From contig JADHNN010000002.1 in assembly GCA_016779485.1 (NCBI GenBank), forward strand, positions 64,580 through 128,579: a stretch of DNA of 64,000 nucleotides, given 5' to 3'. The translations under genes and the position numbers were made by a program. Of the stretch, positions 58,658-60,640 are shown in pieces. Under the pieces are notes generated by a model. That model worked only from the letters and a program-made list of their open reading frames with translations. It was not told the origin of the DNA and did no database searches. Every line of letters starts with the position of its first letter. Position 1 is the stretch's first letter. Source of the DNA: Gammaproteobacteria bacterium. GTDB lineage: Bacteria; Pseudomonadota; Gammaproteobacteria; GCA-002705445; GCA-002716945.

Positions 58658-58676
58658 GGTAGGTAAGGGATTCGAA
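58658..58676 (-). pseudogene. 3' fragment of a split tRNA-Ser(GGA): T-loop/T-stem/acceptor
   Basis: Reverse strand TTCGAAT CCCTT ACCTACC pairs exactly with the 5' acceptor GGTAGGT and T-stem AAGGG of the fragment at 60567-60640. Confidence 0.85.
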
Positions 58677-58717
58677 TTCCTCCTCATACGCTAGAGACTA
58701 ATAAAATAAGAGTTTTT

Positions 58718-58755
58718 AAAAAAGTGTGTGTAAATTATTACAAAAGTGTGTGTAA
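58718..58755 (+). repeat. Two direct AAAAGTGTGTGTAA repeats, left end of island (candidate arm-type sites)
   Basis: AAAAAAGTGTGTGTAA at 58718-58733 and AAAAGTGTGTGTAA at 58742-58755, 22-bp period. Confidence 0.7.
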
Positions 58756-58761
58756 GGTCAG

Positions 58762-60014
58762 TTACTTTTCATTATCACTAAACTTAAGTTTATATATCCA
58801 TGGTTCTAGGAGAATCTTATTTTCCTTAACATATGAAAGAGGATTTTTAATGATTCTTGTTATTTTCGGATTAATCAAAGCATCAGTAACATGATATATA
58901 TGATATTTATCCGCATATTCTCTTGCTGAACTGACTTCATTATCACTAATTTCAAAAAAACTTTTTTTCTTTGTTTTTGTTGACTTAACTTCTATATATA
59001 TTTTGTTACCATGTTCATCAAAAGACTGAATATCATACCCTGGATAAGATGATAGGTCTTCAAACTGTTTTACAATTTTGTCTGCCATATCACTTCTACC
59101 CATTTTTAGTAACTTATTTCTTTCATAGTCAAATACATGATTTTCACCAGCATCACCAACTTTTTTTGAGGGTTTACTATATGAATAATGATCTTTTTGC
59201 TTTTTCTTTATTTTTTTCTTAGGACTAGAATCAATAATATCTGGGTTAAAATCTTTTACTTCATAGTTTAAATTAACATCCTGTTTTTTGTCAGATTCCT
59301 CAAAGACAGTCTCATCTAAAACCTCTAGAAGGAGACTGCTGCTAGGGTCTAATACAATTTTTCTATAACTATCAACATATCTAGATATATCATCTATAAA
59401 TTCTGATTCTGTAAAATCACCATTGACAAGATCATATGATTTTGTAAAAAATGAACCCCCTTTATAATAGTCTGCAATTCTAATCATATTTTGTGAATAC
59501 TCTCTTATTGTAAAATCTTCAGAGATATCCATGAGATCCATTTCATCAAATTTACTTGCTGGTGAGTATTTAAGATAGTTCTGAACAAATTGATTCTTTG
59601 TTTTAATTATTTTTTCAGTAGTTTTACTATTTGCGCCATATTGCTCTTCAAATTGAGTAGCACCAAGTGCAACTGAAATATGTATTTTCTTTGCATTTCT
59701 TGAAAATAGATAAGAAATGTAAAAACCATCTTGAGTGATTCGGTAATCTCTCTGTCCATGACGGCAATCCATGGTATTCCTGTAATACTGGACTGCCCAA
59801 CAGAACCTTTAACTTTGTAAATCCTTTTGTCAATTAGTCCTGATAATTCATTTGGAATAATATTGATTAATAAGTCATATATTCTATGATCTTTTTTTAC
59901 ATAGTATCGATTAGTATTATCAACTACACGCAAACAATCTCTAATATAATCTTCCCAACCCTGAGAAAATTCTAGTAAGTGTTGCTTTATGTTCGTGTTA
60001 CTCATCAAGTTCAT
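58762..60014 (-). pseudogene. MrcB_N (DUF3578)-DUF3883 restriction-like protein, frameshifted (ORFs 59607..60014 and 58762..59772)
   Basis: Frame 1: KGSVGQSSITGIPWIAVMDREIT; frame 2: TQDGFYISYLFSRNAKKIHISVALGATQFEEQYG, together the MrcB_N pattern; C-terminus GENHVFDYE..GYDIQSFDEHGNKIYIEVKSTKT matches DUF3883. Confidence 0.75.
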
Positions 60015-60351
60015 TATACTTTAATGACTTGCCTTTTGACTTTTCAATTGGATACTTTTTTTCATTACGATCAATTTTTTCATTTATGATTACATCTAAA
60101 TCAAAATCTAATTTGCTGGATATTTTTATAAGATAGATGAATATGTCAGCAATTTCTTCCTTGATCTTTTCTCTTTTTTTAGGATCTGTTATTTCATCTA
60201 AACCGCCACTATTAGACCATTGAAAAATTTCGACTAACTCAGCAACTTCTACCGAAAGTGCCATAGAAAGATTTTTAGGACTATGAAATTGTTCCCAGTC
60301 TCTATCTTTCGTAAACTTTTCTAATCTTTTTCGTATTTTATCAATATTCAT
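59998..60351 (-). CDS. MazG-like / dCTPase-like nucleotide pyrophosphohydrolase
   Basis: Start reset to MNIDKIRKRLEKF; SVEVAELVEIFQW ... EEIADIFIYLIKISSKLD is the EExxE..ExxD MazG-type metal-binding pattern. Confidence 0.85.
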   Translation of the reverse strand: MNIDKIRKRLEKFTKDRDWEQFHSPKNLSMALSVEVAELVEIFQWSNSGGLDEITDPKKREKIKEEIADIFIYLIKISSKLDFDLDVIINEKIDRNEKKYPIEKSKGKSLKYNELDE

Positions 60352-60363
60352 AATTAATCTTAA

Positions 60364-60447
60364 GGTGAGTATGGGATTCGAACCCATGTATGTTTGCACA
60401 TAACTACCTTTCCTAGGTAGCGCATTCGACCACTCTGCCAACTCACC
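60364..60447 (-). tRNA. tRNA-Ser (GGA), intact, carried inside the island
   Basis: Reverse strand GGTGAGT...CTACC TAGGAAA GGTAG...ATGGG TTCGAAT CCCAT ACTCACC; class II variable arm. Confidence 0.94.
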
Positions 60448-60488
60448 GGTATATTACTATCATTGTATCATGCTGGTAACAAACCATT

Positions 60489-60515
60489 AAAAAGTGTGTG
60501 TAAAGTGTATGTAAG
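60489..60515 (+). repeat. Two direct GTGTGTGTAA-type repeats, right end of island
   Basis: AAAAAGTGTGTGTAA at 60489-60503 and AAAGTGTATGTAAG at 60502-60515, 11-bp period. Confidence 0.65.
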
Positions 60516-60566
60516 AGATTTAAGCAAAATCCTTATAAACACTACACTTTAAATTAGTAACATCTT

Positions 60567-60640
60567 ATTCGAACCCTTGTAGCGATTGCTCGCTCACCAC
60601 CTTTCCAAGGTGGCGCATTCGTCCACTCTGCCAACCTACC
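60567..60640 (-). pseudogene. 5' portion of the split tRNA-Ser(GGA): acceptor to T-loop
   Basis: Reverse strand GGTAGGT...CCACC TTGGAAA GGTGG TGAGCGAGCAATCGCTAC AAGGG TTCGAAT, then unrelated sequence instead of CCCTTACCTACC. Confidence 0.88.

What the first reader, a model, noticed from the sequence alone, without database searches (positions are those of the whole stretch)
58658..60640. A ~1.9 kb integrase-less island splits a tRNA-Ser(GGA) gene at its T-loop
Seen directly: the reverse-strand tRNA at 60640->60567 runs from acceptor GGTAGGT through anticodon loop TTGGAAA and a variable-arm hairpin to AAGGG TTCGAAT, then stops matching a tRNA. The missing piece, TTCGAAT CCCTT ACCTACC, lies 1.9 kb away at 58676->58658. 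The halves share ATTCGAA, and joining them gives an 86-nt class II tRNA-Ser with perfect acceptor and T-stem pairing. Known: tyrosine-recombinase elements often target tRNA T-loops or anticodon loops. Inference: this is a site-specific insertion. Because it has no recombinase gene, it is either a satellite mobilised in trans or a decayed remnant. Annotation pipelines would probably miss both tRNA fragments.
Basis: partly seen in the sequence, partly recalled or inferred. Interest (0 to 1): 0.85.

Follow-up and report, generated by a model that had tools for sequence, protein, structure and literature searches.

The report
Tiny mobile island with rescue tRNA
A 1.9-kb piece of DNA has inserted itself into the only serine-tRNA(GGA) gene of a marine bacterium and broken it, but it brings its own intact copy of that tRNA, so the host probably cannot live without the invader; the same trick, with different passenger genes and never an integrase gene, recurs at the same spot in related species.

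Summary
In detail: a tRNA-Ser(GGA) gene is split in its T-loop by 1,897 bp (core to core) with a 7-bp duplicated core, and eight relatives have the intact gene at the same locus. The island carries its own intact tRNA-Ser(GGA) (60363-60447, minus strand), the only intact one found in the genome. The island has no integrase, and the genome has only XerC and XerD. Both ends carry paired 11-bp-type repeats at fixed distances from the core, as expected of integrase arm sites. The same plan (core, left arms, spare tRNA-Ser with its own promoter, cargo, right arms, core) occurs at the same site in related species with other cargo, once as a tandem array and once as a ~350-bp unit without cargo. I read it as a satellite form of 'tRNA-dependent lysogeny', known from phages that carry their own integrase. 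The elements are probably moved by a tyrosine integrase supplied in trans, which I did not find, and are kept because losing them would remove the host's tRNA. Element-type tRNAs also appear to have become the resident gene in a relative. New variant of a known kind; interest 0.62.

The parts
60567..60640 (-). 5' part (74 nt) of the disrupted host tRNA-Ser(GGA), ending in the core TTCGAAT (60567-60573)
   Evidence: 71 of 74 bases identical to the intact gene of relative G001
60490..60513 (-). left arm-type repeats TTACATACACTTTACACACACTT; first repeat 61 bp from the core (71 bp in three other elements, about one helical turn longer)
60462..60470 (-). extended -10-like promoter TGATACAAT, 14 nt upstream of the spare tRNA; the same TGNTANNAT motif lies 12-14 nt upstream of the tRNA in three other elements
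60363..60447 (-). intact element-borne tRNA-Ser(GGA), the only intact one found in the genome
   Evidence: Rfam tRNA 52.2 bits; 78-81% identical to native type-A genes
59998..60351 (-). cargo gene 1: MazG-like nucleotide pyrophosphohydrolase, 117 aa
   Evidence: Pfam PF12643, E=4e-17
59607..60014 (-). cargo gene 2, N-terminal piece: MrcB_N (DUF3578) domain; frame interrupted
   Evidence: Pfam PF12102
58762..59772 (-). cargo gene 2, C-terminal piece: rest of MrcB_N plus NOV_C (DUF3883-type), a probable restriction/defence protein
   Evidence: Pfam PF12102 and PF13020; PADLOC PDC-S36, TmtA and PD-T4-1 C-terminal domains; Vibrio prophage homologue annotated MrcB-like
58719..58755 (-). right arm-type repeats (TACACACACTT twice, 22 bp apart); inner repeat 55 bp from the core
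58658..58676 (-). displaced 3' end of the host tRNA-Ser with the second copy of the core (58670-58676)

Best explanation
This is a minimal, integrase-less integrative element (a satellite-like cassette) that uses a phage-type attachment site. Its circular form would have the core TTCGAAT flanked on both sides by arm-type integrase sites. A tyrosine integrase supplied by another element recombines it into the T-loop of the host's only tRNA-Ser(GGA) gene (inferred). Because element and target share only 7 bp, the tRNA is not rebuilt at the junction (shown). The element instead carries a complete tRNA-Ser(GGA) with its own extended -10-like promoter next to the left arms (shown as sequence, expression inferred), followed by cargo, here a MazG-like enzyme and a frame-broken MrcB/NOV restriction-like gene. 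After integration the host depends on the element's tRNA, so loss of the element should be lethal or costly (inferred). Over time the element's tRNA can become the resident gene (suggested by relative G023).
For: Empty sites in eight relatives. Intact tRNA-Ser(GGA) in the island and no other among 31 tRNA genes found. One gene per genome in empty relatives and two copies only in carriers G009 and G015 (the two hits in G014 are overlapping contig ends). Same architecture with different or no cargo in G009, G015, G021, G019 and L096. Inner right-arm-to-core distance 55-57 bp in seven right ends; left-arm distance 71 bp in three and 61 bp here; repeats mostly spaced 11, 16 or 22 bp. Paired arms: 2 in the window, 0 in 60 simulations; in the own genome they occur at these ends plus one unrelated looser match. 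Conserved promoter motif before each spare tRNA examined. Tandem array in L096. Only XerC/XerD-type genes in 23 of 25 species of the order. Working precedent in phages: PMC10865867.
Against: No integrase with matching arms was found in the order, in IMG/VR or in the GTDB pattern scan. No read-level proof of excision or of a circular form. The assembly is ~90% complete, so a second tRNA-Ser(GGA) could be missing. This copy may be decaying: its repeats depart from GTCANACACTT and the MrcB/NOV gene is frame-broken. Expression and essentiality of the spare tRNA are untested.
Confidence: 0.72

Rival explanations
1. Decayed remnant of a larger prophage or ICE that used tRNA-dependent integration and had its own integrase, now deleted.
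For: The MrcB/NOV gene is frame-broken and the repeats are degenerate. Phages with this habit exist and carry integrases.
Against: At least six elements at the same site in different species keep the arm geometry (and, where the contig shows it, the tRNA) while carrying different or no cargo, none with phage or integrase genes. Independent deletions would rarely converge on this plan.
Confidence: 0.17
2. Not a mobile element: the second tRNA and the fragments arose by duplication or homologous recombination at a tRNA hotspot.
For: tRNA loci are recombination hotspots, and resident tRNA types differ between relatives.
Against: Exact 7-bp core duplication, clean empty sites, fixed arm-core spacing and insertion of unrelated tRNAs at the identical T-loop position in three genera.
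Confidence: 0.05
3. Ordinary tRNA-targeting island whose left end rebuilds a functional tRNA, the inner tRNA being an unrelated passenger.
For: The same tRNA gene seems to receive canonical tRNA-restoring insertions in G016/G022, and the SAR11 loci L090/L093 look canonical.
Against: Here the sequence after the core (AAGATGTTAC...) pairs with neither the T-stem nor the acceptor, and ARAGORN sees no tRNA there. The inner tRNA has the same anticodon in every element where it is seen.
Confidence: 0.03
4. Assembly chimera or misjoin of two loci.
For: The genome is a draft in 12 contigs.
Against: The same junction logic is seen in independent assemblies (L062, L069, L096), and the flanks are syntenic with empty relatives.
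Confidence: 0.03

Closest known systems
tRNA-dependent lysogeny of actinobacteriophages (Fionnbharth and others; Guerrero-Bustamante & Hatfull 2024, PMC10865867)
   Same: attB overlaps a host tRNA; core of ~10 bp or less, so the tRNA is not rebuilt; [quoted passage not shown] arm-type repeats flank the attP core.
   Different: Those are complete temperate phages with their own tyrosine integrase. Here the elements are 0.35-2 kb, have no integrase or phage genes, sit in a tRNA T-loop of marine gammaproteobacteria, and can form tandem arrays.
tRNA/tmRNA-targeted genomic islands (Islander, PMC4383910) and tandem ssrA islands of Dehalococcoides with integrase-less, possibly cis-mobilizable members (PMC3146451)
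   Same: Site-specific insertion in a tRNA or tmRNA gene, tandem accretion, integrase-less members.
   Different: Those islands rebuild the target's 3' end; here a whole second gene replaces it. The Dehalococcoides islands use a serine recombinase.
Additive flexible genomic islands and tRNA-repeat cassettes of streamlined aquatic bacteria (Actinomarinales PMC7771536; Methylophilaceae PMC10872708)
   Same: Small gene cassettes at tRNA genes in streamlined aquatic genomes; islands as small as 330 bp reported.
   Different: [quoted passage not shown] In the passages I read, no full rescue tRNA, T-loop disruption or arm sites are mentioned.
Tycheposons (named in PMC10872708 as 4-200 kb tRNA-bordered elements; original 2023 paper not held)
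   Same: Cargo-carrying elements at tRNA genes in marine picoplankton.
   Different: Tycheposons carry a tyrosine recombinase and are larger.
Integrase-plus-TerS satellites in the same order (G002 at tRNA-Glu, G005 at tRNA-Arg)
   Same: tRNA target; paired tandem repeats in direct orientation near both ends.
   Different: They carry an integrase with the Arm-DNA-bind_3 domain and a TerS-like gene, and their repeats read GGGGGTCA or GGGGGTGCA, not GTCANACACTT.

Membership tests
tRNA-dependent lysogeny (phage) | attB overlaps a host tRNA gene | tested here: met
tRNA-dependent lysogeny (phage) | short common core, tRNA not rebuilt at a junction | tested here: met
   7-bp core; sequence after the core does not pair
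[quoted passage not shown]
   tRNA-Ser(GGA) in the island and in the other carriers where it is seen
tRNA-dependent lysogeny (phage) | disrupted tRNA is essential and complemented by the element | tested here: inconclusive
   only intact copy found in a 90% complete genome; UCC+UCU are 37% of Ser codons in long window ORFs; no experiment
tRNA-dependent lysogeny (phage) | element-encoded tyrosine integrase | tested here: not met
tRNA-dependent lysogeny (phage) | phage genome / prophage | tested here: not met
   only MazG-like and MrcB/NOV genes; matches to phage DNA cover only the tRNA
Canonical tRNA genomic island | island sequence restores the target tRNA | tested here: not met
Canonical tRNA genomic island | own integrase | tested here: not met
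Cis-mobilizable / trans-mobilized element (CIME-like) | flanking att sites without recombination or transfer genes | tested here: met
Cis-mobilizable / trans-mobilized element (CIME-like) | accretion next to a helper element | tested here: inconclusive
   tandem array in L096; no helper found
Tycheposon | tyrosine recombinase hallmark gene and multi-kb size | tested here: not met
   definition from PMC10872708

The most novel reading that the evidence does not exclude
A family of minimal mobile cassettes exists whose only conserved gene is a tRNA. They break an essential single-copy tRNA gene, replace it with their own (an RNA-based addiction), bring a fresh T-loop attB with them, stack in arrays, move with an integrase supplied in trans, and so drive repeated replacement of a core tRNA gene.
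Probability: 0.45. Interest if true: 0.82.

Novelty: new variant of a known kind. Interest (0 to 1): 0.62.

Why it matters
If right, a mobile element can be as small as an attachment site plus one tRNA gene (~350 bp in G015) and still be hard to lose, because the host's decoding depends on it. It extends tRNA-dependent integration from large phages to satellites in streamlined marine bacteria. It offers a mechanism for the puzzling replacement of core tRNA genes and for small gene cassettes at tRNA genes in genomes that lack integrases. It also gives a searchable signature (tandem GTCANACACTT arms about 55 and 71 bp from a T-loop core) for finding helpers.

Tried and rejected
Helper search: the arm pattern in 85k-species genome contigs gave relatives, two SAR11 loci and one unrelated intergenic match beside ATP-synthase genes. 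In IMG/VR, 39 loci with a relaxed pattern: one had an integrase-like ORF, far from the repeats. Stricter patterns found a Streptococcus-type phage coding coincidence and unrelated repeats. In 397 SAR11-family genomes only the two known ones matched. Integrases of G002/G005 were considered as helpers, but their arms and tRNA targets differ; viral relatives of them carry no matching arms. Viral contigs with an element-like tRNA-Ser were unrelated. Intron idea: Rfam finds nothing but the tRNA in the island region. I considered calling the split 5' half decayed; its three differences from G001 do not break pairing, so I dropped that. G014 first looked like two tRNA copies; upstream and tRNA sequences are identical at two contig ends, so it is one locus.

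Full report
1. The observation. The minus strand of the window carries the first 74 nt of a tRNA-Ser(GGA) at 60640->60567. Its last 19 nt lie at 58676->58658, and both pieces share TTCGAAT. The joined gene is 86 nt. The distance from core to core is 1,897 bp. Eight relatives in the same family hold an uninterrupted tRNA-Ser(GGA) at the same locus. In the closest one with both flanks matched (G001) the flank matches meet with an overlap of exactly 7 bp. The insertion is therefore real and the relatives show the empty site.

2. ARAGORN and Rfam find a complete tRNA-Ser(GGA) inside the island at 60363-60447. A covariance scan of the whole genome found 31 tRNA genes; apart from this one the Ser genes are GCT and TGA. 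A pattern scan of 25 species of the order found one tRNA-Ser(GGA) in each genome with a hit, and two in G009 and G015 (in the own genome a base change hides the split copy from the pattern). G014's two hits are one locus at overlapping contig ends, with identical tRNA and upstream sequence. In G009 and G015 one of the two copies is split at the same T-loop position and the other lies just downstream inside an insert. So the carriers seem to live on the element's tRNA. In long ORFs of the window UCU and UCC make up 37% of serine codons. Whether the gene is essential was not tested.

3. A family, not a singleton. In the direction of the tRNA the order is: host 5' half, core, ~61-71 bp, left repeats, spare tRNA-Ser(GGA), cargo, right repeats, ~55 bp, core, host 3' end. 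G009 carries a MORN-repeat protein. G015 carries nothing but the tRNA between the two sets of repeats (about 350 bp); a further stretch follows to the contig end. L096 holds a tandem array, a tRNA-plus-MORN unit followed by a tRNA-plus-HD-domain-like unit. G021 and G019 show right ends of the same type. The repeats read GTCANACACTT (TTACANACACTT here) and come in tandem, mostly at 11-, 16- or 22-bp spacing. The inner right repeat lies 55-57 bp from the core in seven ends. The left repeat lies 71 bp from the core in three elements and 61 bp here, about one helical turn less. Paired repeats occur twice in the window, exactly at the two ends, against 0 in 60 simulations. Such helically phased direct repeats on both sides of a core are what a lambda-type tyrosine integrase needs (established knowledge; also described for the phages of PMC10865867). 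Each of the four spare tRNAs examined has TGNTANNAT 12-14 nt upstream, an extended -10-like signal.

4. No integrase. The island encodes a MazG-like enzyme and a MrcB_N/NOV_C protein broken by one frame change. The latter resembles defence proteins, and a homologue sits in a Vibrio prophage beside Gin-type recombinase genes. The genome's only PF00589 genes are the dapF-linked XerC and a XerD-like gene. Among 25 species only G002 and G005 have a further full-length integrase. Both belong to satellites with a TerS-like gene at tRNA-Glu and tRNA-Arg, with quite different repeats. No helper was found in the viral or genomic collections (see tried and rejected).

5. How it most likely works. Shown: the split target, the 7-bp core, the non-reconstructed junction, the spare tRNA, the conserved end geometry, the absence of an integrase. 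Inferred: integration by an integrase supplied in trans; dependence of the host on the spare tRNA; locking-in because deletion of the island would remove the tRNA. The spare tRNA itself contains TTCGAAT within a T-stem, so each element also brings a new potential target.

6. Consequence: tRNA turnover. At this locus the resident tRNA-Ser(GGA) belongs to dissimilar types. Native genes of G001 and G018 are only 60% identical, while G018 and G013 are 99% identical, although the adjacent MFS proteins of these pairs are similarly distant (67% and 59% identity). The resident tRNA of G023 is 97-98% identical to element-borne tRNAs of G015 and L096, but 86% identical to that of its congener G013, while their MFS proteins are 77% identical. 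This fits replacement of the resident gene by element tRNAs; homologous replacement by other routes is not excluded.

7. What is known. tRNA-dependent lysogeny (PMC10865867) is the same logic in actinobacteriophages with their own integrase. The Islander abstract (PMC4383910) states the usual rule, that the island restores the broken tRNA; this element does not. Small tRNA-linked cassettes are known in streamlined aquatic bacteria (PMC7771536, PMC10872708; [quoted passage not shown] Tandem, partly integrase-less ssrA islands are known in Dehalococcoides (PMC3146451). I found no report of a rescue-tRNA element without an integrase, in a library that lacks most subscription papers. Working principle: like tRNA-dependent lysogeny. 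Membership: not a member, since integrase and phage genes were tested and absent. Hence 'new variant of a known kind'.

8. Limits. These are uncultured marine gammaproteobacteria with ~1-Mb genomes. No reads were available to test excision.

Noticed in passing
L090:685-1582 and L093:371-499 (SAR11 records): Two Pelagibacter-type genomes carry the same GTCANACACTT repeats beside a tRNA-Gly(GCC) target (intact gene seen in L090) with a repeat of its 3' end: integrase-less cassettes, the L090 one about 0.8 kb with one 198-aa gene, that appear to rebuild the tRNA in the usual way. Only 2 of 397 SAR11-family genomes had the repeats.
   Followed up: partly
L221:8700-13614 (G002) and L222:6282-10740 (G005): Small satellites with an Arm-DNA-bind_3 integrase and a TerS-like gene at tRNA-Glu and tRNA-Arg; their tandem repeats read GGGGGTCA or GGGGGTGCA. 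Likely phage satellites of this order.
   Followed up: partly
L183:1637-1718 and 1911, L187:283-364 and 522-603, L020 (end): SAM-II-like riboswitch candidates (below Rfam's gathering score) downstream of tRNA-Ser(GGA) in G016 and G012, and a matching leader in G022 before a small gene that ends at a tRNA 3' repeat: perhaps SAM-controlled cassettes at the same tRNA site.
   Followed up: partly
L062:9586-10349 (G009): A second unit follows the first: it starts with a 3' fragment of a foreign-type tRNA-Ser (CTCCCTCTATC) and holds a 178-aa gene before the host's own 3' end; no right arms are visible.
   Followed up: partly
window 60347-60363 and L062:8520-8540: The leader TTAAGATTAATTATGAA before the first cargo gene is identical here and in G009 although the cargo genes are unrelated, hinting at modular cargo exchange behind a shared start signal.
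   Followed up: no
window 59607-59772: MrcB_N/NOV_C gene is split by a single frame change; pseudogene or assembly error cannot be told apart here.
   Followed up: no
window 58657 and 60363; relatives G001, G007, G002: Native tRNA-Ser(GGA) of G001, G007 and G002 has U at the discriminator position, as do the displaced 3' end and the spare copy here; elements in G009, G015 and L096 have G.
   Followed up: no
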